Source: Delftia sp. PS-11 (GTDB lineage: Bacteria; Pseudomonadota; Gammaproteobacteria; Burkholderiales; Burkholderiaceae_C). From it: DNA of 38,217 bases. The stretch lies in the NCBI RefSeq assembly GCF_029870285.1, contig NZ_JACSYA010000043.1, positions 1 to 38,217 of the forward strand. The letters run 5' to 3'. This document shows, in pieces, positions 18,150-28,663 of the stretch (its first letter is position 1; each line of letters opens with the position of its first letter). Under the pieces are notes generated by a model, which made no database searches, was not told the origin of the DNA, and saw nothing but the letters and a program-made list of their open reading frames with translations. A program made the translations under genes and the position numbers.

Positions 18150-20618
18150 TCAGGCGCTGCTGCCTGCGTGGGCTGCCAGTGTGCCTTGCCAGCGGCGCAG
18201 CACAGCCTGCGCGCCGCCCTCGAAATACTCCGCATCCAGGGGCACGGGCGGCGCCACCGCAAAGCCCTGGGCATAGTTCACGCCGATGGACTGAAGGGCC
18301 TGGGCGGTTTCGCTGGAGGCCACATATTCCGCCACCGTGCGCTTGCCCAGGATATGGCCGATGCGGTGGATCATCTCCACCATCGCATGCACCGTGGGGT
18401 CGTGCAGCATGTCCCGCACGAACTCGCCATCGATCTTCAGGTAATCGACCGGCAGCTGCTTGAGGTAAGTCAGCGATGACATGCCCACGCCGAAATCATC
18501 CAGCGCGAAGCGGCAGCCCAGCGTGCGCAGGGACTGGATCAGCCGGGCGGCACCTGACAGGCTGGCGATGGCGCTGGTCTCGGTGATCTCGAAGCACAGC
18601 AGTTGCGGTGCGATCCCGTGCATGCTCAGCTGCGCCTGCACGAAGCCCAGCAGTCCGTCGTCATCCAGGCTGGCCGCTGAAAGATTGATGGCGCAGGTAT
18701 CGACATGCCTCAGCATTGTGGGGTGTGCGGCCAGGATGGCAATGGTGCGGGCAATCACCCAGCGGTCCACGGCAGGCATGATGCCGTAGCGCTCGGCCGC
18801 AGGCACAAAGGATGAAGGTGCCACGATCTTGCCCTGCTCGTCGCGCAGCCGCAGCAGCACCTCGAAGTGCAGGCCGGTCGGGTCGTCGAGCTGCAGCGGT
18901 GCCAGGGTATGCGCGTACAGGCAAAAACGGTCCTGTTCCAGCGCCGAGCGGATGCGCGCGACCCACTCCATGTCGCTGACATGGCGCGTGTACTCGCCGT
19001 TGTCGCTGCGGTAGATGTAGACGCGGTTGCGTCCCCGTTCCTTGGCCCGGTAGCAGGCCATGTCGGCCATGCGCAGCAACTCCTGTGCCGAATGGACATC
19101 TCCAGCCAGATGCACAAGGCCGATGCTCAGGCCGGTGCGCAGGGTCTGCTGTCCCCACTGCACATGCAGCGATTCCACGGCTGCACGCAGCTTCTCGGCA
19201 ATCTGCACCGCAGCCTCGGGCGGGCAGTTTTCCAGCAGCACCCCGAACTCGTCGCCGCCCAGGCGCGCCAGCGTATCCGTCTCGCGCAGGCTGTGCAGCA
19301 GCAGGCGGCATACCTCGCACAGCATTTCATCGCCTGCCGGATGGCCGCAGGTCTCGTTGACAAGCTTGAACTGATCGAGGTCGATATGCAGCAGCGCCGA
19401 GGCGTGCTGCCGATGCTGTCCCATGTTGAGCAGGCGCTGCAGCCGCCGCTCGAATTCGGCACGGTTTTCCAGCCCTGTCAGGCTGTCGTGGCTGGCATGC
19501 CATGACAGCTGGTCCAGATACTGCTGCTCACGCGAGACATCGCGCAGCACGATGACCGCGCCAGACCGCTGGCCATGGTTGGTGATGGCGGCCCCCATCA
19601 GCTTGACAGGCACGACGCTGTGGTCCGTGCGCCTCAGCCAGCGCGTCTGCTCCTCGCGCAGGGCCTGGCCCGACAGCAGCTGTGCCAGCAGTCCTTCTGC
19701 GGTCTGGCTGGCATCGATGCTGTTGAAGTGCAGCTCCCTTGACAGCGGCTCTCCCCTGAGCTGCGCATCCATGCAGCCCAGCAAATCCAGTGCGGCCGGA
19801 TTGGCATAGTCCACGATGCCCCGGACGTCAGTGGTGATCACCGCATCGCTGAGCGATGCCAAGGTGGTCTGTGCACGTTCCTTTTCCGTGAACAGATCAT
19901 TCTTGAACTGCTGGCGCTGCAGCAGGATGCGCCGCGTATGCCATGCGGCCAGCAGGATCAGTATCACTGCCAGCAGCAGATGGATGCCCTGCAGCCAAAG
20001 CACCAGCTGGCGCGAGCTGCGTCCCAGGGACGCACTGAATTGCTGCGCGACGGGCGAGACGCCCAGGTTGATCTGCTCGATCTCCCGCTTCCAGGTGGCA
20101 GCGCTTTCGGCGCTGACATGGCCCAGCGCGTGGCCCTGCTCTATCTCGGCAGCCAGCTGGCTCAGCTGGTTCAGATACTGCTGGCCCACGGCCCAGTGGC
20201 GATAGGGCTCCTGAAGCCACGCCACATCGCGCAGGTACTTGATCAGCAGGGTCAGCGCCTGCACATCATCCGGATGGTTGCCGCCCACCACGATGGCTGC
20301 CTGCGCGTCCGCGATGCGCGGCGGGTTATCGTCCATGGCTACGCGGGCATCCCAGTCGCCAGCGGGAATGCGCATGGCCTGCCGGAAAAGCTTGAGATCG
20401 CGCGATGAGCCGCTGTCCACGTAGCGGCTCAGATAGTAGATGGCATCTTTCTGGGCCTTGGACCACAGGCTTTCGCCTGCCACGAAAGCCCGCACGGCCG
20501 AGACCAGTGAGAGGCTGATGCTGGCAGTGAGCATCAGTACCAGAACGATCAGCGCCAACGGCCAGATTCGCTGCATCAGCTGCAGCGGGGAAACCGGAGC
20601 GGGGGGGCTGGGGGACAT
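18150..20618 (-). CDS. Membrane PAS-GGDEF-EAL cyclic-di-GMP turnover protein
   Basis: An 822-residue inner-membrane protein. Transmembrane helices at about 18-42 and 205-227 flank a periplasmic sensor domain of roughly 160 residues. A PAS domain lies at about 245-365 and the GGDEF domain at about 375-540 with intact GGDEF (454-458). An inhibitory I-site RxxD (R445-D448) is placed five residues upstream. The EAL domain covers about 550-805. Its signature reads EVL (586-588) rather than EAL, but E586, N645 (AINLSA), DDFG (707-710) and K728 are present, so phosphodiesterase activity is plausible. Both activities may be present or one may dominate. The start at 20618 (MSPSPP) is chosen because upstream residues are unlike protein. 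It is transcribed away from ygiQ's end (convergent). Confidence 0.88.
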   Translation of the reverse strand: MSPSPPAPVSPLQLMQRIWPLALIVLVLMLTASISLSLVSAVRAFVAGESLWSKAQKDAIYYLSRYVDSGSSRDLKLFRQAMRIPAGDWDARVAMDDNPPRIADAQAAIVVGGNHPDDVQALTLLIKYLRDVAWLQEPYRHWAVGQQYLNQLSQLAAEIEQGHALGHVSAESAATWKREIEQINLGVSPVAQQFSASLGRSSRQLVLWLQGIHLLLAVILILLAAWHTRRILLQRQQFKNDLFTEKERAQTTLASLSDAVITTDVRGIVDYANPAALDLLGCMDAQLRGEPLSRELHFNSIDASQTAEGLLAQLLSGQALREEQTRWLRRTDHSVVPVKLMGAAITNHGQRSGAVIVLRDVSREQQYLDQLSWHASHDSLTGLENRAEFERRLQRLLNMGQHRQHASALLHIDLDQFKLVNETCGHPAGDEMLCEVCRLLLHSLRETDTLARLGGDEFGVLLENCPPEAAVQIAEKLRAAVESLHVQWGQQTLRTGLSIGLVHLAGDVHSAQELLRMADMACYRAKERGRNRVYIYRSDNGEYTRHVSDMEWVARIRSALEQDRFCLYAHTLAPLQLDDPTGLHFEVLLRLRDEQGKIVAPSSFVPAAERYGIMPAVDRWVIARTIAILAAHPTMLRHVDTCAINLSAASLDDDGLLGFVQAQLSMHGIAPQLLCFEITETSAIASLSGAARLIQSLRTLGCRFALDDFGVGMSSLTYLKQLPVDYLKIDGEFVRDMLHDPTVHAMVEMIHRIGHILGKRTVAEYVASSETAQALQSIGVNYAQGFAVAPPVPLDAEYFEGGAQAVLRRWQGTLAAHAGSSA

Positions 20619-20814
20619 GTGCCCGACCTGCGCGCTGTGCCGATTTCCTGGTGTCAGGCGCAGCGTGGCGCCACGGTCTCGCAGGCGCGGCAATGGCGCA
20701 GTGCGCTGTGCGGATGGCGTCTCGGGGGGGTGCTGACCATGTCCATGCGGTAGTCTCCAGATACGCCGATTATGGAGGCTTCCATGGGCGTTTCCGTGGT
20801 CCGTGGCATGTGCG

Positions 20815-21774
20815 TCAGCAAGAAAGGCGGTCTCTCTCCGTTCCCTCTCCGTGCCCAGGTCCGGGCATGCAGTGCACAGGCAGATCATGCTGCCGGGCCA
20901 GCGCAGCGATCTGCCCGCAGTCGAGCCCGCGCAGGAATGCGGCAATCGCCGCATGGGTTTCGGGCCTGCGCAGCAGGGCCGCATCCCCCAGCGGCGGCAA
21001 GCCGGCAACAGCGCAAAGGCGGGCTGCGAAATGCGGCTCCAGCGCTGCCACAGCGACGGTGCCTCCCACACAGTCGTAGACCCGGTAGCCTGCGTGCGCG
21101 CCTCCCACATCGCCATCGGGCGTGGTCAGGCCCCAGTGCCATGGCAAGGCCAGCCACTGCGCCGCCTGGGCCAGGCCAACCTCCTGCAGGCAGCCCTGGC
21201 CGCTGCGCTGGCGCAGCAGCCATGCCTGCAGCACGGCCTCGCTGGCCATCAGGGCACCGGCCATATCGGCGAACAGGCTGGGCGGCATGGCACCGCGCTG
21301 CACCAGCCCTGCCTCGGCCTGGTAGGTCAGGTCATGGCCTGGCAGATCGGCCAGGGCTCCGGCACTGCCGACGACGCGGACCATGGACAGATGGGGGTAC
21401 TGCTGGCGCAGTGCCTGCCAGTCCAGTCCCAGCTTGACCAGCGCAGCCGGGCGAAAAGAGGTCAGCAGCACGTCCGTGCCGGCCAGGGCCTGTTGCAGCG
21501 CCGCCTGTCCGGCCTCGCTTTTGAGGTGCGCCTGCCAGACATCGATTCCGGCATGCATGTCGGCATACGCCTGGGGACTGTAGTGCGCCATCGGATCGCT
21601 GCCCTGCGAGTCCGGGCCTGCCGCTGGCGGCTCCAGCTTGCGGCAAAGCGCTCCCATGGCGGTGCACCGCATCAGGGCGGCAGGGCCCGGCAGGTTCAGC
21701 GCCAGGCTCAGTATGCGCACGCCGGCCAGTGCCTGTGTGCCTGGAAGGGTGCTGCGCAGGTCGTTGGTAGGCAT
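20815..21774 (-). CDS. CaiB/BaiF-family CoA-transferase or acyl-CoA racemase
   Basis: A 319-residue class III CoA-transferase family protein. Seen: the N-terminal block LAGVRILSLALNLPGPAA (about 17-34), the ADVLLTSFRP-like strand (101-109) and the catalytic-aspartate motif GHDLTYQAEAGL with D148. The Asp forms the acyl-CoA anhydride in CaiB/Frc, or acts with a His in alpha-methylacyl-CoA racemase. At 319 residues it is shorter than most transferases (about 380-400) and nearer to the racemase group, so racemase or transferase remain open. The start at 21774 is used because upstream residues are not family-like. A strong terminator lies about 110 bases upstream, so it is transcribed on its own. 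Substrate unknown. Confidence 0.75.
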   Translation of the reverse strand: MPTNDLRSTLPGTQALAGVRILSLALNLPGPAALMRCTAMGALCRKLEPPAAGPDSQGSDPMAHYSPQAYADMHAGIDVWQAHLKSEAGQAALQQALAGTDVLLTSFRPAALVKLGLDWQALRQQYPHLSMVRVVGSAGALADLPGHDLTYQAEAGLVQRGAMPPSLFADMAGALMASEAVLQAWLLRQRSGQGCLQEVGLAQAAQWLALPWHWGLTTPDGDVGGAHAGYRVYDCVGGTVAVAALEPHFAARLCAVAGLPPLGDAALLRRPETHAAIAAFLRGLDCGQIAALARQHDLPVHCMPGPGHGEGTERDRLSC

Positions 21775-22061: not shown

Positions 22062-23054
22062 TTACTGCCTTTCCAGTTTCGCGGCCTGGATGATGGTGTT
22101 CCAGCGCAGGTACTCAGCCCGCGTGAACTCGCGGAAAGCCCTGGCATCCATGAGCCGCACCTCCCCGCCCAGCGCCGTCACTTTGGCCTTGAAGTCCGCG
22201 CCGCCCGCCAGTTTGAGCGTGGCCTCCTCGATGCGCTTGACCACGGCGGACGGCGTTCCCTTGGGTGCGAGCACGCCATTCCAGGTGCCGGTGACGAAGG
22301 TGGCGTAGCCGCTTTCCTTCATGGTGGGAACATCGGGCAGCGCTGGCAGGCGCTGCTCCGATGTCACTGCCAGCGCCTTGAGCTTGCCTGACTGCACGAA
22401 GGGCAGGGCCGGCGTGATGTTCTCGAAGATGAAATCGATCTGCCCGCCCAGCAGGTCGGTCAGCGCGGGGGCGCTGCCCTTGTAGGGTACATGCACCATG
22501 TCGAGCTGGGTGGCGCTCTTGAACAGTTCGCCGGACAGGTGCACCGTGGAGCCGCTGCCCGGCGAGCCATAGCTCATCCCTGTCTTTTGCGCGCCCGCGC
22601 GCGCCACCAGATCTTTGACCGACTTCACGGGCGTGCGCGCCTCATTGACCACCAGTACGTTCGGAATCGTGGTCACCAGCGCGATGTATTCGAAGTCCCC
22701 CAGGTTTTTTTCGCCCATGTTCCTGTAGAGGCTGGGATTGATGGCCTGCGTGCCTGCCGTGCCGAAGAGCAGCGTATAGCCGTCGTTGGCGGCCGAAGCC
22801 ACACGGCTGGCGCCGATGGAGCCATTGGCGCCGGAGACGTTCTCGACCACCACCGGCTGTCCCAGCGATTCCGTGAGGCCCTGGGCCACCATGCGTGCCA
22901 GCAGGTCGGTGTTGCCGCCGGGCGCAAAGGGGACCACCAGCTTGATGGGGCGGGATGGGAAAGTCTCCGCCATGGCCAGCGGCTGTGCGAGCAGGGCTGC
23001 TCCCAGCACCCCCAGGGTGCCGAGGAAGCGCTTGCGTGAAAAAAGCGGGTGCAT
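22062..23054 (-). CDS. Tripartite tricarboxylate transporter solute-binding protein (Bug)
   Basis: A 330-residue periplasmic binding protein of the Bug/TctC family. The signal peptide is residues 1-29 (KRFLGTLGVLGAALLAQPLA, cleavage after AMA). The mature protein begins ETFPSRPIKLVVPFAPGG, the classical first strand, with VVVENVSGANGSIGA and YGSPGSGSTVHLSGELFK as ligand-shell blocks, and DVPTMKESGY in lobe 2. The start at 23054 follows CAGGAGA on the minus strand. No TctA/TctB membrane genes are nearby; Bug proteins are typically present in large orphan families in these bacteria and bind small carboxylates. The strong terminator downstream and the two inverted repeats upstream (23145-23194) suggest a separately regulated monocistronic unit. 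Confidence 0.9.
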   Translation of the reverse strand: MHPLFSRKRFLGTLGVLGAALLAQPLAMAETFPSRPIKLVVPFAPGGNTDLLARMVAQGLTESLGQPVVVENVSGANGSIGASRVASAANDGYTLLFGTAGTQAINPSLYRNMGEKNLGDFEYIALVTTIPNVLVVNEARTPVKSVKDLVARAGAQKTGMSYGSPGSGSTVHLSGELFKSATQLDMVHVPYKGSAPALTDLLGGQIDFIFENITPALPFVQSGKLKALAVTSEQRLPALPDVPTMKESGYATFVTGTWNGVLAPKGTPSAVVKRIEEATLKLAGGADFKAKVTALGGEVRLMDARAFREFTRAEYLRWNTIIQAAKLERQ

Positions 23055-23144
23055 GAAATGTCTCCTGATCTGGGTTTTTCAAATGGTGCGAAGGCAGGGC
23101 GGACGGCGCCCGCCATACGGGCAGCCTATCCTCTGGGGGGAAGT

Positions 23145-23162
23145 CATTGACGTCAATCAATG
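23145..23162. promoter_or_regulatory. Palindromic operator candidate upstream of the Bug gene
   Basis: A perfect 12-base palindrome ATTGACGTCAAT (23146-23157) nested in a wider inverted repeat CATTGA (23145-23150) / TCAATG (23157-23162). It lies about 90 bases upstream of the Bug start, so it may bind the gene's regulator. Evidence is symmetry and position only. Confidence 0.45.
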
Positions 23163-23175
23163 ATTTGGCAGGACA

Positions 23176-23194
23176 TCATTCATAAACCGAATGA
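23176..23194. promoter_or_regulatory. Second inverted repeat with the same TCATT half-site
   Basis: TCATTC (23176-23181) and GAATGA (23189-23194) with a 7-base spacer. The half-site TCATT is shared with the neighbouring palindrome at 23145-23162. Two such sites about 30 bases apart, centre to centre (roughly three helical turns), would suit cooperative binding by one regulator. Confidence 0.35.
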
Positions 23195-23232
23195 CCTCAG
23201 GACTTTCTGGCAGCTCAGGCGGGCAGCGCATG

Positions 23233-23248
23233 GCCTCCGTGCGGAGGC
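23233..23248. promoter_or_regulatory. Perfect GC-rich inverted repeat between divergent genes
   Basis: GCCTCCG (23233-23239) and CGGAGGC (23242-23248) with a 2-base centre. As RNA it would be a stable hairpin only with a larger loop; as DNA it may be a binding site. It lies immediately before the AT-rich promoter-like block of the ibrA-like gene. Confidence 0.3.
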
Positions 23249-23253
23249 ATTTC

Positions 23254-23285
23254 TCAGATTAGTCTGATAAATAATTCTCATTTGC
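23254..23285 (+). promoter_or_regulatory. Fur-box-like sequence and adjacent TCAGA/TCTGA repeat
   Basis: The block GATAAATAATTCTCATTTGC (23266-23285), read on the minus strand, matches the classic 19-bp Fur box GATAATGATAATCATTATC at about 12 of 19 positions by hand alignment. TCAGA-TTAG-TCTGA (23254-23267) abuts it. It sits about 75-100 bases upstream of the ibrA-like start, where an iron-responsive repressor could act. The AT-richness of the block in a GC-rich genome is conspicuous. Confidence 0.35.
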
Positions 23286-23355
23286 GTATTTATCATGGAT
23301 GTCTGCCGAGCCTGCCGCTGATGGTGTGGCGATATGTCCTGGAGAGAAGTACGTA

Positions 23356-24582
23356 ATGCAAAAAAACTACCGCGATACCGATGTCCATCAGGCCGCCAAG
23401 GCCCGGCTGCGGCTGGTCTTTCAGCACTTCGAGCAGGTTTGCGTCGCGTTTTCCGGCGGCAAGGACAGCACGGTGCTTTTGCATCTGGCCCTGGAGGTCG
23501 CTGCCGAAATGGGGCGCGAGCCAGTGCATGCGCTGTTCGTCGATCTGGAGGGCCAGTACCGTGCCACGATCGACCATGTCGCTGAGATGCTGAGCCGCAG
23601 CGATGTGCGCCCCTGGTGGGTATGCCTGCCCATCAATCTGCGCAATGCATCCAGCCTGCAGGAGCCTTTCTGGTGCGCGTGGGAGCCTGGCCGGGAGCAG
23701 GACTGGATCCGGCCCATGCCCAGCCATCCCGCCGTCATCAGCGATCCCGGCTACTTTCCCTTCTTCCGCCACCGCATGGAGTTCGAGGATTTCGTGCCGG
23801 CATTCAATGAGTGGCTGGCGCGCGATGTTTCCACGGCCGTGCTGGTGGGCATCCGCTCGGACGAGTCGCTGAACCGCTACCTGGCCATCAAGCGGCGGGC
23901 CCGCATCAAGAAGCGCGCCTGGCGCACACCGGCAGGCGATGCGATTGCATGGAGCGCCAAGGATCGCCCCAACAGCCAGGCCGTCAGCTTTTTCCCCATC
24001 TACGACTGGGGGTTTGAAGACCTCTGGCGCTATACCGCCGAGCGTGGCTGCGCCTACAACCGCATCTATGACGCCATGTACCGCACAGGCATGCTGTTTT
24101 CGCAGATGCGCATCTGCCAGCCTTACGGAGACGACCAGCGCAAAGGACTGGACCTGTTCCAGAAGCTCGAGCCCGACACCTGGGCGCGGGTGGTCCACCG
24201 GGTCACTGGCGCCAACTATGCGGCACGCTACAGCCGCCAGCGCTTTCTCGGCTACCGGGGCGGACTGGGGCTGCCACCCTCGTTTGCGTCCTGGCATGCC
24301 TACTGCCTTTTCCTGCTGGGCAGCTATCCGCAGCCGCTGCGCAGCGTCTACGAGCGGCGCATACATCGGTTCATCGAGTGGTGGAGCGAGCATGGCTATC
24401 CGCTGGCGGTGTGGCCCGATGCCGGGACCCCGGCGCTGGAAAACCGCAAGATGCAGCCTTCCTGGCGCAGGGTGGCGCTGTCCCTGCTCAAGCAGGACAT
24501 GGCGCGTTCGCTGTCGTTCGGCTTTGCGCAGCGTGACCTGGATACTCTGGTGAGTGCCTCCGTGCCAGGAACTGCGCCATGA
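23356..24582 (+). CDS. ibrA: IbrA-like PP-loop (PAPS-reductase-fold) protein with DUF3440
   Basis: A 408-residue protein of the adenine-nucleotide alpha-hydrolase/PAPS reductase superfamily. The PP-loop is FSGGKDST (32-39), followed by VDLEGQY (62-68), GIRSDES (165-171) and PIYDW (214-218), all usual landmarks of this fold. The C-terminal half (about 230-400) corresponds to DUF3440. The C-terminal ECGxH catalytic cysteine motif of assimilatory PAPS reductase is absent, so sulfate reduction is unlikely; ATP-dependent activation of another substrate is more plausible, as in DndC, TtcA and TilS-like enzymes. The start at 23356 follows GGAGAG (23341-23346). The stop overlaps the next gene by four bases. 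E. coli IbrA, with IbrB, activates eib immunoglobulin-binding genes. Confidence 0.8.
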   Translation: MQKNYRDTDVHQAAKARLRLVFQHFEQVCVAFSGGKDSTVLLHLALEVAAEMGREPVHALFVDLEGQYRATIDHVAEMLSRSDVRPWWVCLPINLRNASSLQEPFWCAWEPGREQDWIRPMPSHPAVISDPGYFPFFRHRMEFEDFVPAFNEWLARDVSTAVLVGIRSDESLNRYLAIKRRARIKKRAWRTPAGDAIAWSAKDRPNSQAVSFFPIYDWGFEDLWRYTAERGCAYNRIYDAMYRTGMLFSQMRICQPYGDDQRKGLDLFQKLEPDTWARVVHRVTGANYAARYSRQRFLGYRGGLGLPPSFASWHAYCLFLLGSYPQPLRSVYERRIHRFIEWWSEHGYPLAVWPDAGTPALENRKMQPSWRRVALSLLKQDMARSLSFGFAQRDLDTLVSASVPGTAP

Positions 24583-25037
24583 CTGGGGCGCCGCCATGCG
24601 ATTTCTGCATCCTGCGTTCCGGCGACGGCGAATCCGCATTCTTTGCCTGCATGGGCCGGTTTTTCGCCTGTCCTGAGGTGCGCCGCGATTGCGGAGGCTA
24701 TCCGCTCAATGATGGGCCGGCCTATCTCTGGTTTGTCGCCCGGCGGCGTTGCGATGGGCGCGTGCTGGGCTTTGTCAGCATCGAGCAGGGAGCTGGCATC
24801 GTGCGCATTCGCCATGGCTATGTCGTTCCCGAAGCACGCGGCCTGGGCCTGTTTCGCCAGCTGCGCAGGCAGGTTCTGGCCCATATCGATGACCAGGGAG
24901 TCCGCTGCGCCACCAGCGTGCCCCTGGCCGATCTTCCTTTTCTGGCCCCCTGGGGCTTCAGGCTCCGGCACCAGCGCGGTGGCTGGGTCACTTTGGAGAG
25001 AACCGTCAATGCAAGAGTTGAGCCACCACATCCTTGA
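24579..25037 (+). CDS. GNAT-like acetyltransferase, Cys-rich, inside the ibrA-ibrB pair
   Basis: A 152-residue protein with a GNAT-like core: the strand VLGFVSIEQG (about 62-72), then IRHGYVVPEARGLGLFRQL, which has the V-P-x-x-R-G-x-G acetyl-CoA pyrophosphate loop (a slightly atypical first position), and an FLAPWGFRLR ending like the GNAT strand 6-7 region. The first 40 residues are unusually rich in cysteine (C7, C10, C24, C31, C38), which could bind a metal. It overlaps ibrA by 4 bases (ATGA 24579-24582) and the ParB-fold gene by 29 bases, so the three are translationally coupled. A cellular substrate is not deducible; acetylation of the partner proteins, a nucleic-acid base or a small metabolite are options. 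Confidence 0.65.
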   Translation: MTGAPPCDFCILRSGDGESAFFACMGRFFACPEVRRDCGGYPLNDGPAYLWFVARRRCDGRVLGFVSIEQGAGIVRIRHGYVVPEARGLGLFRQLRRQVLAHIDDQGVRCATSVPLADLPFLAPWGFRLRHQRGGWVTLERTVNARVEPPHP

Positions 25038-25644
25038 AAAAGCCTCGGCCCTGTTCGGGCAACTGCAGGCGCTGCCCCTGGAGCGCAGGATCGAGACGCT
25101 CAATGCACTCAGAGCCCTGCTGCATGCGCACAGCCCATTCGCCCATGAGCCTGTGGACTGTGTTCAATGGATACCTGGCGATTGCCTTCAGGCCAACGAC
25201 TACAACCCGAATGCAGTCGCTCCGCCGGAGATGCGGTTGCTGGAGCACTCCGTGCGCACGGATGGCTTCACGCAGCCCGTCGTGGTGCACCGGCACGATG
25301 ACGGCTATGTGGTGGTGGATGGATTTCACCGCCAGCGCATCGCCAAGGAGGTGCAGGATATCCGGCAACGGCTGTCCGGCCATGTGCCGGTCGCCATCAT
25401 TGCGCCGGAGCGCTCGGAGCGCGGTGACCGCATGGCCGCGACGATCCGGCACAACCGGGCCCGGGGCGTGCATGCGGTCATGCCCCTGATGGACATCGTG
25501 ACGGAACTGCTGGGCAGCGGCTGGAGCGATGACCAGGTGGCGCAGGAGCTGGGCATGGACGACGACGAGGTGCGGCGCTTCAAGCAGGTGTCCGGCCTGC
25601 CGCAGCTGTTTCGTGACCACCCCTACTCGAAAGCCTGGGAGTGA
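25009..25644 (+). CDS. ibrB: IbrB-like ParB/sulfiredoxin-fold protein
   Basis: A 211-residue protein with a ParB N-terminal-like nuclease/CTPase fold. QPVVVHRHDDGYVVVDGFHR (89-108) contains the catalytic-type loop VDGFHRQRIA (103-112), corresponding to ParB GERRxxA. MAATIRHNRARG (142-153) corresponds to the second ParB box. A helix-turn-helix-like tail WSDDQVAQELGMDDDEVRR (172-190) follows. A helical leader (about 1-45) precedes the fold. The start at 25009 follows GGAGAG (24995-25000) and lies inside the preceding gene. E. coli IbrB is the partner of IbrA. Chromosome partitioning is unlikely because there is no ParA. Nucleic-acid binding or nucleotide hydrolysis is the inference. Confidence 0.8.
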   Translation: MQELSHHILEKASALFGQLQALPLERRIETLNALRALLHAHSPFAHEPVDCVQWIPGDCLQANDYNPNAVAPPEMRLLEHSVRTDGFTQPVVVHRHDDGYVVVDGFHRQRIAKEVQDIRQRLSGHVPVAIIAPERSERGDRMAATIRHNRARGVHAVMPLMDIVTELLGSGWSDDQVAQELGMDDDEVRRFKQVSGLPQLFRDHPYSKAWE

Positions 25645-25646
25645 GC

Positions 25647-25685
25647 GCAGGCGGCCCGCTCCCGGCATTTCGCAGGCCCGCCTGC
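25647..25685. terminator. Large inverted repeat between ibrB and the tannase gene
   Basis: GCAGGCGG (25647-25654) and CCGCCTGC (25678-25685) with a 23-base loop lie between two convergent stop codons. No T-run follows, so it is either a weak bidirectional terminator or chance pairing in GC-rich DNA. Confidence 0.3.
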
Positions 25686-25698
25686 CTGGGGCCATCCG

Positions 25699-27378
25699 CT
25701 ATTGCACGGCGCAGACAAAGCTGGCGGCATCCTCCACGCTGCCCGAACCCTTGTACTTAGCGAACTTCGGGTATGCGCACAGCGGGCGTGTGCGGTTGGG
25801 GAAGTCCGTGCTGGAGGGCAGGGCGCGGGCGGCAATGGTTTCGGGCGCGATGCCTTTCTCCACCCAGTCCACCATGGTCTGTATGGAGTCGAAGGTATCC
25901 GTGGCCGGACCGCCCGAGCAATGGTTCATGCCTGGGACCAGGAAGGTGCGCGCAAAGCCTTGCGTGGATTCCATGCCGCCATTGCGTGCGGCCAGCCGCT
26001 CGTAATAGTCGATGGTGTCCTGCGCCGAGAAGATCGGATCGGACATGCCGTGGATGAACAGCATCTTGCCGCCGCGCTGGCGATAGGCACTGAGCTGGTC
26101 GTCACGGTAGGTATCGTAGATCGCCGAATAGGCCTGCATGCGCGCCGGATCGGTATCGAAGTTGAAGGTCAGCGGATTGAAGGTCAGATCGGGGGGCGTG
26201 AAGAACTCATTGACCATGGCGTCCACGATCAGCGTGATGTAGCGGGAGTCCGGCGTGGCCGTGGTGGAGCTGCCCAGCGTCCAGTTGCGCCAGCCGGGCG
26301 CGGCCAGGCCCGGGTCCCAGGGCTGGCCCGCGTACAGGGCCTGCCCGGCCGTGTTGCGTGGCCCCGCGAAGACATTGCGCAGCGCGTTCACCTGGGCGCC
26401 GCTGAGGCAGTCGGCTCCCTTTGCGCCTGTGCATTGCAGTACCCCGGGGTCGAAGCGGCAGGCCTTGACGTTGTTCACCATGCCATCGGCCACGCCATCG
26501 GCGGCATCGCATGATGCGGTCACGGCCTTGGCCACCAGATTCAGGTCTGCGTTGCTGAAGGCCTGGGACAGAATGCGCTTGCCGCTGGCATCGGCCGGCG
26601 CGATGGCATCCATCTGTATGGTGTTCCACATGGCGGCAATCGTGGCGCCGCTGGACACCCGCATCGCGGGCGCGCCCGCCGTGATGGCATCGAAGTAGTC
26701 GGGAAAGCGCTGCGAGAACACCATGCCCTGGCGCCCGCCGCCGGAGCAGCCGGAAAAGTACGAGTGGTCGGGCTTGCGGCCGTAGCGCGTCGCAATCAGC
26801 GACTTGGCGGCCACGGCTGTTTTGTCATAGGCGTTGTAGGCATGGTCCAGGCGCGCCTGCGGGTCTGCTCCGAAGCTGGCCGTCGTGCCGCTGTGCCCGG
26901 CGTCGGTGGAGACCACGGCAAAGCCCTGGCCCAGCGGCGAGGGCGTGCCGCCCGAGATGCTGGAGCTCAGCGAGGTGTCGCGCAGAATGCCGTCGTTGCC
27001 GCCGCCGCCGATGAAGAGGAAGCGGCCATTCCATTGGTCCGGCAGGCTCAGTTGAAAGCCGATGGCGTAGTCTTTGCCATCCACGCCGACACGCGGATTG
27101 ATGGCGCCGGTGACCACGCAGTGGCCGGGCAGAAAGGCGCCGGTGCTGGCGCCACCGGGCCGGCGCGTATCCGCCGCCACATAGCTGGTGGACAGGCGGG
27201 TGTTCGCCAGGCCCGCCCTGGCGGGCAGGTCGGAGCAGGCAGCGGCTGGCGTGGCCTGTTCCGCCAGGATGGCTGTGCTGCCGCCGCCGCAGCCGGCCAC
27301 CAGCAAGGCGGCCGCCAGGGCGGCCATGGTGGAGGGAAGGGCAGGCCGCAGGGCCTGTGTGCAATAGGTGGTTTTCAT
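25699..27378 (-). CDS. Tannase/feruloyl esterase family lipoprotein
   Basis: A 559-residue alpha/beta hydrolase of the tannase-feruloyl esterase family. The signal is a lipobox (LLVAGC, C30), so it is probably an outer-membrane or periplasmic lipoprotein. The nucleophile is S212 in SGCSGGGRQG, D447 lies in HGMSDPIF, and H486 with C487 in PGMNHCSGG; C211 and C487 form the disulfide typical of the family. The lid domain carries a Ca2+-type loop CDAADGVADGMVNN (290-303). The enzyme likely splits gallate or hydroxycinnamate esters from plant material, or a related aromatic ester (MHETase belongs to this family). The start follows CAGGAGA. It is convergent with the ibr cassette. Substrate cannot be fixed from sequence. 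Confidence 0.85.
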   Translation of the reverse strand: MKTTYCTQALRPALPSTMAALAAALLVAGCGGGSTAILAEQATPAAACSDLPARAGLANTRLSTSYVAADTRRPGGASTGAFLPGHCVVTGAINPRVGVDGKDYAIGFQLSLPDQWNGRFLFIGGGGNDGILRDTSLSSSISGGTPSPLGQGFAVVSTDAGHSGTTASFGADPQARLDHAYNAYDKTAVAAKSLIATRYGRKPDHSYFSGCSGGGRQGMVFSQRFPDYFDAITAGAPAMRVSSGATIAAMWNTIQMDAIAPADASGKRILSQAFSNADLNLVAKAVTASCDAADGVADGMVNNVKACRFDPGVLQCTGAKGADCLSGAQVNALRNVFAGPRNTAGQALYAGQPWDPGLAAPGWRNWTLGSSTTATPDSRYITLIVDAMVNEFFTPPDLTFNPLTFNFDTDPARMQAYSAIYDTYRDDQLSAYRQRGGKMLFIHGMSDPIFSAQDTIDYYERLAARNGGMESTQGFARTFLVPGMNHCSGGPATDTFDSIQTMVDWVEKGIAPETIAARALPSSTDFPNRTRPLCAYPKFAKYKGSGSVEDAASFVCAVQ

Positions 27379-27472
27379 GGGGTGTCTCCTGTCGCCCGAG
27401 CGTAAGTCCGGGGACCGGGGACACCTGTCATCTCAGAGGATGACGGGATAACCCGCCCATTGCCATCCGGGA

Positions 27473-28663
27473 TCAGAGGCGGCGCAGCCGCTGCACGGCC
27501 TCGCGCAGCGTGGCGTCCTGCTTGGCAAAGCAAAAACGCACCACGCGCTGATCGAAGCCATCGCCGTAGAAGGCTGACAGCGGAATGGCAGCCACGCCGT
27601 GCGTGCGCACCAGCCACTGGCAGAAGGCGGCCTCGCCCAGATCCGAGACCTGCGAAATGTCGGCGCAGACAAAATAGGTGCCAGCTGTGGGCAGCAGCTT
27701 CAGGCGCGAGCCGGCAAGCCCCTCGCAAAACAGGTCGCGCTTGGCCTGGTAGAACGCCGGCAGCTGCAGATAGGGCGCGGGGTCGCGCATGTACTGCGCC
27801 AGGCCCATCTGCATGGGCGTGTTGACGGTGAAGACATTGAACTGGTGAACCTTGCGGAACTCGGCCGTCAGCGCGGCCGGTGCCGCCACAGTGCCCACCT
27901 TCCAGCCTGTGACATGGTAGGTCTTGCCAAAGCTGGAGATGATGAAGGCGCGTGCTGCCAGCCCCTCGAAGCGCGCCGCGCTCTGGTGCTGCTGGCCGTC
28001 GTAGACCATGTGCTCGTAGACCTCGTCGCTGATCAGCAGCACATCCGTAGGGGCCAGCAGCGCCTCCAGCGCGCGCATGTCGGCATCGCTCCAGACGGTG
28101 GCGCTGGGATTGTGCGGGCTGTTGATGATCAGCAGCCGCGTGCGTGGCGTGATGGCTGCTGCAATCCTGGCAAAGTCGGGCTTGAAGGTGCCGGGCGTCA
28201 GCGGCACGCGCACCGCCACGCCGCCCGCCAGCTCGATGTTGGGCACATAGCTGTCATAGCAGGGGTCGAGCACGATGACCTCGTCGCCCGGATGCACGGT
28301 CGCCAGAATGGCCGTCAAAATGGCCTGCGTGGCGCCGGCCGTGATGGTGATGTCGGTGGCGGCATCATAGCGGCGGCCGTACAGGGCCTCTATCTTGGCG
28401 GCCACGGCTTCGCGCAGCGGCGCCAGGCCGGTCATGGGTGGGTACTGGTTGTGGCCGGCCTGCATCGCTGCCGTGACCGCATCGACCAGGCGCGGATCGC
28501 AGCCGAAGTCTGGAAAGCCCTGGCCCAGGTTCACGGCCTGGTGCTCGGCAGCCAGGGCCGACATGGTGGTGAAAATGGTCGTGCCCACATTGGGCAGGCG
28601 GCTGGGGAAGGCGGGAGTGCGGTGTGTCTCGTGCTGTGCAGAGGTCATGGCGATAGCGGACAA
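27473..28663 (-). CDS. Class I/II pyridoxal-phosphate aminotransferase (YbdL/methionine type)
   Basis: A 396-residue fold type I aminotransferase. N-terminal substrate loop NLGQGFPDFGCDP (45-57), the ITAGATQAI cofactor motif (107-115), NSPHNPS (181-187, N185), DEVYEHMVY (213-221, D213 and Y216) and the Schiff-base lysine K247 in SSFGKTYHVTGWKVG. RVVRFCFAK near the C-terminus holds the alpha-carboxylate arginine. The VTGWKVG and YEHMVYDG context resembles E. coli YbdL and betaproteobacterial methionine aminotransferases and kynurenine aminotransferases, so it probably uses methionine, aromatic or kynurenine-like amino acids with a 2-oxo acid. Two starts are possible, at 28663 and 28648. It lies between the tannase and cysB, all on the minus strand. 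Confidence 0.85.
   Translation of the reverse strand: MSAIAMTSAQHETHRTPAFPSRLPNVGTTIFTTMSALAAEHQAVNLGQGFPDFGCDPRLVDAVTAAMQAGHNQYPPMTGLAPLREAVAAKIEALYGRRYDAATDITITAGATQAILTAILATVHPGDEVIVLDPCYDSYVPNIELAGGVAVRVPLTPGTFKPDFARIAAAITPRTRLLIINSPHNPSATVWSDADMRALEALLAPTDVLLISDEVYEHMVYDGQQHQSAARFEGLAARAFIISSFGKTYHVTGWKVGTVAAPAALTAEFRKVHQFNVFTVNTPMQMGLAQYMRDPAPYLQLPAFYQAKRDLFCEGLAGSRLKLLPTAGTYFVCADISQVSDLGEAAFCQWLVRTHGVAAIPLSAFYGDGFDQRVVRFCFAKQDATLREAVQRLRRL

What the first reader, a model, noticed from the sequence alone, without database searches (positions are those of the whole stretch)
23356..25644. Three-gene IbrA-like / GNAT / IbrB-like cassette, candidate uncharacterised system
Seen: a PP-loop protein (SGGKDS, DUF3440-like), a GNAT-like protein and a ParB-fold protein overlap by 4 and 29 bases, so they are made as a unit. 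Known: IbrA and IbrB activate eib genes in E. coli; PP-loop enzymes include DndC (DNA phosphorothioation) and tRNA thiolases; ParB folds bind CTP and DNA or act as nucleases. Inference: an ATP-activated chemistry combined with an acetyl transfer and a DNA- or nucleotide-binding partner may modify a nucleic acid, regulate transcription or act in phage defence. Nothing here resembles eib target genes.
Basis: partly seen in the sequence, partly recalled or inferred. Interest (0 to 1): 0.75.

Follow-up and report, generated by a model that had tools for sequence, protein, structure and literature searches.

The report
IbrA–IbrB pair with extra acetyltransferase
Three overlapping genes encode an ATP-using enzyme, an acetyltransferase and a protein of a nucleotide- and DNA-binding type; they are a rare variant of a gene pair that phages often carry and whose chemistry is unsolved, and the repeated presence of the acetyltransferase gives a new handle on what the pair does.

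Summary
Three overlapping genes (23356-24582, 24579-25037, 25009-25644) encode a DUF3440/PP-loop protein (IbrA-like), a genuine GNAT and an IbrB-like ParB-fold protein, among ordinary chromosomal genes of a Delftia/Comamonas-type genome.

The GNAT is no accident. It accompanies IbrA and IbrB in 15 of 20 related genome loci and 17 of 80 viral contigs (a sample ranked by likeness to our IbrB), in four gene orders; all 32 hits lie within 52 bases of a partner; its presence changes at least 13 times on the IbrB tree.

IbrB models as a ParB/KorB nucleotide-binding fold plus a KorB-type DNA-binding domain. IbrA keeps an invariant PP-loop (96 of 96) but no invariant cysteine, so DndC-like sulfur chemistry is not supported; its nearest solved relatives are CysD and FAD synthase. 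Neighbours of the chromosomal copies show no defence island; phage copies lie near replication and recombination genes.

Best reading: a three-gene variant of the phage-borne IbrAB module, an NTP-gated, DNA-directed, ATP-driven modification or gene-control device that the GNAT decorates or tunes. The chemistry is inferred, not shown. New variant of a known, mechanistically open kind.

The parts
23356..24582 (+). Gene A: IbrA-like PP-loop/DUF3440 protein, 408 aa
   Evidence: DUF3440 85.3 bits, PAPS_reduct 63.5 bits; start choice by ribosome-binding-like site and GC3
23452..23469 (+). PP-loop SGGKDS, residues 33-38 of A
   Evidence: S33, G35, K36, D37, S38 identical in 96 of 96 aligned relatives
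24579..25037 (+). Gene B: GNAT acetyltransferase, 152 aa, overlaps A by 4 bases
   Evidence: Pfam PF00583 at its cut-off; AlphaFold2 model pLDDT 91.7 and GNAT fold matches
24837..24854 (+). Acetyl-CoA loop of B, residues 87-92 (RGLGLF)
   Evidence: R87 33 of 33 and G90 32 of 33; assignment as acetyl-CoA loop is known GNAT biology, recalled
25009..25644 (+). Gene C: IbrB-like ParB-fold protein, 211 aa, overlaps B by 29 bases
   Evidence: phrog_2159 237.6 bits; homologues named IbrB-like; ParB/KorB fold
25321..25332 (+). GxxR phosphate motif of C (GFHR, residues 105-108)
   Evidence: G105 and R108 101 of 101; aligned with GERR of a ParB; GxxR named as Box II in PMC12704722
25429..25599 (+). Helix-turn-helix-type domain of C, residues 141-197
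23341..23346 (+). Ribosome-binding-like sequence before A
   Evidence: read from the sequence
24995..25001 (+). Ribosome-binding-like sequence before C, inside B
   Evidence: read from the sequence

Best explanation
The cassette is a three-gene variant of the phage-borne IbrA-IbrB module. IbrB (C) is an NTP-gated, DNA-binding protein of the ParB/KorB type that brings IbrA (A) to DNA. IbrA is a PP-loop enzyme that spends ATP to adenylylate (activate) a group on the bound nucleic acid or on a partner there, giving a local modification that changes DNA recognition or transcription. The GNAT (B) acetylates an amine on the product or on a partner protein, an optional decoration that phage and bacterial lineages have gained or lost many times. 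Shown: sequence families, modelled folds of B and C, invariant motifs, tight linkage, repeated presence or absence of the GNAT, phage association. Inferred: NTP and DNA binding by C, adenylylation by A, DNA as substrate, the GNAT's target.
Against: No substrate is known, and no gene for an unusual base precursor was recognised among the recurrent neighbour families of the phage copies. Folds are models; the last residues of C are low confidence. GERR of ParB is GFHR in C, so hydrolysis may differ. The GNAT is missing in 3 of the 17 A-before-C genome loci (L009, L013, L018), so it is dispensable. Four genome loci are Achromobacter with shared context, and the viral set is ranked by likeness to C, so counts are not independent. 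The GNAT itself is rare (1 of 399 genomes of the order, 1 of 369 of the class, 3 of 399 of the family). A KorB-like C fits a plain regulator equally well, as do plasmid copies beside adhesin genes and regulators.
Confidence: 0.4

Rival explanations
1. Pure gene regulation: IbrB is a KorB-like transcription regulator, IbrA its nucleotide-sensing partner, and the GNAT acetylates one of them or a transcription protein. No nucleic acid is modified.
For: IbrAB is cited as activating eib (PMC7649339); C resembles KorB, a repressor, including its DNA-binding domain; two-gene copies lie beside CaiF/GrlA and SprB-type regulator genes and surface protein genes on plasmids and beside an autotransporter gene in L018; ibrB and perC are neighbours by locus tag and rise together in adherent E. 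coli (PMC7649339).
Against: Does not explain why A keeps an intact ATP-pyrophosphatase-type loop in 96 of 96 nor why lytic and temperate phages carry the pair in replication modules. No YadA_anchor gene in the window genome.
Confidence: 0.27
2. Phage conflict: the module is an anti-restriction or defence modification system.
For: Abundance in phages; C5-type and other DNA methyltransferase genes near some copies; a two-gene relative beside type I-E cas genes on a Streptomyces plasmid; a phage-plasmid with IbrA/B and CRISPR/Cas in a table of PMC4490671; weak DndC and BrxP matches (28.9 and 18.3 bits).
Against: Chromosomal three-gene copies stand alone among unrelated genes; PADLOC matches in 70 of 96 neighbours are single proteins; no nuclease partner in the cassette.
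Confidence: 0.13
3. RNA modification: A activates a tRNA or other RNA base, as TilS does, with C as RNA-binding partner and the GNAT acetylating it.
For: PP-loop enzymes modify tRNA (TilS and LarE models give weak matches to A).
Against: C has a KorB-type DNA-binding domain; TilS N-terminal model 24 bits against a cut-off of 93.6.
Confidence: 0.1
4. Toxin-antitoxin unit, with the GNAT or A as toxin and C as DNA-binding antitoxin.
For: A Listeria survey lists a ParB/DUF3440 pair as a candidate by guilt-by-association (PMC7020466).
Against: The GNAT is optional (absent in 63 of 80 viral and 5 of 20 genome loci), and A and C without it are very common; the C conservation is enzyme-like. No small ribbon-helix-helix partner gene was seen.
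Confidence: 0.04
5. Sulfur metabolism or phosphorothioation, as the PAPS-reductase annotation suggests.
For: PAPS_reduct domain match 63.5 bits; C254 is cysteine in 88 of 96.
Against: No cysteine is invariant, and C90 is alanine in 22 of 96; DndC and PAPS reductase model scores far below cut-off.
Confidence: 0.04

Closest known systems
IbrA-IbrB of E. coli ('co-activators of prophage gene expression'), with E. coli YbdN-YbdM
   Same: DUF3440/PP-loop protein and IbrB-like ParB-fold protein side by side and co-oriented; carried by phages and plasmids
   Different: A GNAT gene lies between the two with overlaps; the window genome has no YadA-anchor (eib-like) gene
DndB-DndC of DNA phosphorothioation
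   Same: ParB-superfamily protein working with a PP-loop enzyme (PMC10853773 passages)
   Different: A has no invariant cysteine and scores 22.6 bits against the DndC cut-off of 290.4
DpdA-DpdB (7-deazaguanine in DNA)
   Same: A ParB-like ATPase partnered with a DNA-modifying enzyme (PMC12839542 passages)
   Different: The enzyme there is a transglycosylase homologue, here a PP-loop protein
ParB-fold/acetyltransferase fusion proteins (PMC12704722)
   Same: ParB nucleotide-binding fold joined to an acetyltransferase domain; one bound GTP
   Different: Here separate genes, with a PP-loop enzyme as third partner
KorB of plasmid RK2
   Same: Among the best structural matches: nucleotide-binding fold followed by a DNA-binding domain
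   Different: C has an N-terminal two-helix extension and no room for a C-terminal dimerisation domain

Membership tests
IbrA / DUF3440 | Pfam DUF3440 above its curated cut-off | tested here: met
   85.3 bits against 25
IbrA / DUF3440 | Intact PP-loop and neighbouring IbrB-like gene | tested here: met
   SGGKDS present, loop residues 96 of 96 in relatives; C in the same overlapping operon
IbrAB | Activation of eib or other prophage genes | not testable with these tools
   needs an expression experiment; no YadA_anchor match in this genome
IbrB-like | ParB fold with GxxR motif | tested here: met
IbrB-like | Pfam ParB_N above cut-off | tested here: inconclusive
   26.0 bits against 26.3; many close homologues carry PF02195 and several the name IbrB-like
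Canonical partition ParB | ParB family model cut-off and a ParA gene next door | tested here: not met
   TIGR00180 20.7 against 58.45 bits; adjacent genes are a TctC receptor and a tannase
GNAT acetyltransferase | GNAT fold and conserved acetyl-CoA loop | tested here: met
GNAT acetyltransferase | Acetyl transfer activity | not testable with these tools
   needs an assay
DndC | Cysteines for a 4Fe-4S centre and a cysteine dyad (as described in PMC10853773) | tested here: not met
   only C254 (88 of 96) and C90 (68 of 96) are frequent; 22.6 against 290.4 bits
PAPS reductase | Family score; C-terminal catalytic cysteine (recalled) | tested here: not met
   TIGR02057 15.9 against 254.2 bits; last cysteine of A is residue 317, not conserved
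Known anti-phage defence system | Match to a defence model and clustering with defence genes | tested here: inconclusive
   A: DndC 28.9 and BrxP 18.3 bits, B and C none; single-protein matches in 70 of 96 neighbours; one cas neighbour of a relative

The most novel reading that the evidence does not exclude
IbrA-IbrB is the core of an undescribed, NTP-gated nucleic-acid modification system that phages use widely, and the GNAT (like the unnamed partner domain D) is one of several interchangeable tailoring enzymes that give the mark different chemical forms, here an acetylated one. The window carries a chromosomally settled, stand-alone copy.
Probability: 0.25. Interest if true: 0.85.

Novelty: new variant of a known kind. 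Interest (0 to 1): 0.55.

Why it matters
A third, catalytic partner that keeps rejoining the pair narrows the chemistry: some product or partner should carry an acetylatable amine, which mass spectrometry can look for. If the pair marks DNA, a widespread phage modification has been overlooked; if it controls transcription, a switch tied to both NTP and acetyl-CoA is in view.

Tried and rejected
Sulfur or DndC-like chemistry: no cysteine of A is invariant in 96 aligned proteins. PAPS reductase: scores far below cut-off. Defence island: 70 of the 96 neighbour proteins of L002-L018 (14 of 17 loci) were scanned. Pfam gave 80 families, of which 25 are shown (EAL 6, GGDEF 4, response regulator 4, metabolic enzymes; one TraC and one HicB-like antitoxin). 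PADLOC gave 12 families at E 1e-10, one protein each; the tally does not say whether it is the same protein (ZorD, DpdE, DrmD, Csa3 and PDC models). Left out of the 70: all of L008, L016 and L017 (kin of L004) and ten further proteins; two of these ten (an Lhr-like helicase of L002, an unmatched protein of L015) were scanned. Mobile element at the site: the ten further window proteins scanned are not phage or transposon genes; tRNA genes were found in only 2 of 18 loci, L009 and L018.

GNAT as Mom-like DNA modifier: no such PHROG family matched, and no entry named Mom is among the 50 viral fold matches shown; absence from a list is no proof. Toxin-type GNATs: none named among the 50 rows shown.

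Regulation: perfect TTGATNNNNATCAA sites lie before A in L002 (-118) and L011 (-148). In 19 upstream regions (4750 nt) there are 4 sites with at most 1 mismatch, against 3 in 250,620 nt elsewhere, but two of the four (window, L062) belong to the TctC gene's region and occur also in cassette-free relatives. A Fur-like box before the cassette was dropped: 12 of 19 matches, reached by 13.5% of shuffles in the window and 3.5% in L062, and a similar half site is visible in the cassette-free L059.

GNAT seen from its own side: viral contigs gave 1 confirmed locus from 59 pattern matches (same record as L078). Whole genomes: order 4 of 399 at E 1e-3, only the window's own being more than about 24 bits; class 1 of 369; family 3 of 399, all three with A and C. 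No tblastn match of B in the plasmid or phage collections; the Rhodovastum plasmid GNAT (annotated) is too divergent for tblastn.

Papers: searches listed none that describes a GNAT with IbrA-IbrB; only CC-licensed PMC text was searched, and only the listed titles, abstracts and the passages named in the report were seen. The primary IbrAB paper is not held and is cited second-hand.

Full report
What is there. Searches confirm three overlapping genes on the plus strand: A 23356-24582, B 24579-25037, C 25009-25644, with overlaps of 4 and 29 bases and ribosome-binding-like sequences before A and C. A is a PP-loop/DUF3440 protein, B a GNAT, C a ParB-fold protein. Next to them lie a TctC receptor gene and a tannase gene, further out a CoA-transferase, an aminotransferase, a LysR gene and other ordinary chromosomal genes. 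The genome is of a Delftia/Comamonas type: its relative G052 has a contig as long (6,126,880) as the one holding a protein named Delftia tsuruhatensis.

The site. In the genus 5 of 53 genomes match A at E 1e-3, but only 2 (the window's and G052, 82% identical) are full length; the others are about 20-bit fragments. Between the TctC gene and the aminotransferase gene the content varies: about 230 bases between the matched flanks in G002, a TonB receptor gene in G001 (with the tannase gene) and G051, cassette plus TonB receptor gene in G052, cassette plus tannase gene in the window. The cassette is beside the TctC gene in both genomes that have it.

Is the GNAT real and conserved? A scan with C gave 20 genome loci from 65 pattern matches. 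A is in all 20, B between A and C by tblastn in 12. With an HMM a GNAT is in the cluster in 15 of 20: 14 A-B-C and one C-B-D-A (three of the 14 are printed there as B-A-C because the GNAT frame is open upstream, and one search places their GNAT domains between A and C). The other five are A-C (L009, L013, L018), C+D-A (L019) and C-D-A (L020). Four loci are Achromobacter with shared neighbours, so independent cases are fewer. Their architectures: C-D-A 22, A-C 16, C fused to D then A 14, A-B-C 11, D-A-C 6, C-D-B-A 4, C-D 2, and one each of C-D-A-B, C, C-D-A-A, C fused to D, C-B-D-A; so GNAT in 17 of 80 and D in 52 of 80. A is present in 76 of 80; the other four contigs end within 1 kb after C. 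The 32 GNAT domains among 5218 ORFs all lie on the cluster's strand within 52 bases of an A, C or D domain. L099 and L100, and L014 and L078, carry identical C proteins. On a quick tree of 97 C proteins, with many weakly supported forks, GNAT presence changes at least 13 times, D 6 times and gene order 8 times. Six divergent GNATs sent to Pfam all match GNAT families above cut-off. A Rhodovastum plasmid is annotated DUF3440, GNAT, hypothetical, ParB in a row.

Divergence. In 13 three-gene loci compared with the window A is more alike than C, and C more than B, in 12 of 13: A 70-82%, C 61-67%, B 50-62% identical. The parts that would choose the target or decorate the product change fastest.

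Context. Among the 20 genome loci the only neighbour families shared by three or more loci are those of the Achromobacter group and one EAL/GGDEF-type family near four loci. The defence scan is described under Tried and rejected. Phage copies neighbour DNA helicases, RecT-like proteins, a polymerase processivity factor, Cas4-type exonucleases, DNA methyltransferases and integrases (65 of 242 near neighbours scanned, first 25 of 140 families shown); a family that reads like a C5 cytosine methyltransferase (judged by eye) is in 9 of 80 loci. Named phages with the pair include Streptococcus phage CHPC1230, annotated IbrA and IbrB, Mycobacterium phage Gaia and Flavobacterium phage 23T. On the plasmids read, two-gene copies lie beside regulators and a haemagglutinin-type gene, a fimbrial usher-like and a tryptophanase gene, autotransporters, type I-E cas genes, or a porin, ParAB and a transporter. 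In E. coli K-12 CitR represses ybdNM (PMC9068703 passages). PMC8813620, PMC4490671, PMC4541368 and PMC6008420 (passages) report IbrA/IbrB in archaeal viruses, glacial phages, a Flavobacterium phage and a Macrococcus prophage.

How it most likely works. Shown: operon, families, modelled folds, invariant motifs, repeated GNAT presence and absence. Inferred: C binds NTP and DNA; A activates a target with ATP; the target is DNA or something held on it; B acetylates an amine of the product or of a partner. The DNA reading leans on two precedents of a ParB-like protein with a DNA-modifying enzyme, DndB-DndC (PMC10853773 passages) and DpdB-DpdA (PMC12839542 passages), and on the phage replication context. 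An optional, repeatedly gained or lost GNAT and D are what one expects of tailoring enzymes under restriction pressure, but also of adaptors of a regulator. I give 0.4 to the DNA-directed device as worded and 0.27 to regulation without modification.

Known or new. A and C meet the tested features of the IbrA and IbrB-like families except the Pfam ParB_N cut-off, missed by 0.3 bits. They are not DndC, PAPS reductase or a partition ParB. The GNAT-bearing variant was not found in the papers searched: a new variant of a known kind whose mechanism is open.

Noticed in passing
L020:747-1127, L021:7032-7430, C-terminal part of L019:6004-7149: An unnamed domain D of about 125 residues (no Pfam or PHROG match for the L020 copy) recurs with IbrA and IbrB in 52 of 80 viral loci, free-standing or fused to IbrB.
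   Followed up: partly
window 18150-21116; L005, L011, L015, L018: EAL/GGDEF (cyclic-di-GMP) proteins: 6 of 70 neighbour proteins, in 4 of 14 loci, and one about 2.2 kb before the window cassette; the window genome has 24 EAL matches in 5.44 Mb. A possible link, but other hosts may carry more such genes.
   Followed up: partly
L002 about 118 and L011 about 148 bases before gene A: Perfect FNR-type sites TTGATNNNNATCAA before two three-gene cassettes; the E. coli ybdN promoter is also said to be a predicted FNR target (PMC9068703).
   Followed up: partly
window 23054-27473 and relatives L059-L062: The spot between the TctC receptor gene and the aminotransferase gene is variable in the genus: nearly empty, TonB receptor gene, tannase gene or cassette.
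   Followed up: partly
window 23265-23285: A Fur-box-like stretch in the AT-rich region before the cassette; not clearly better than shuffles.
   Followed up: partly
L167:7019-7816: The Rhodovastum plasmid has a second, shorter PAPS-reductase-family gene about 1.4 kb beyond the DUF3440-GNAT-ParB set, on the other strand; PAPS-reductase families also match 2 of 65 neighbours of the phage copies.
   Followed up: no
L170 (Streptomyces plasmid): A two-gene DUF3440-ParB copy lies beside type I-E cas genes.
   Followed up: no
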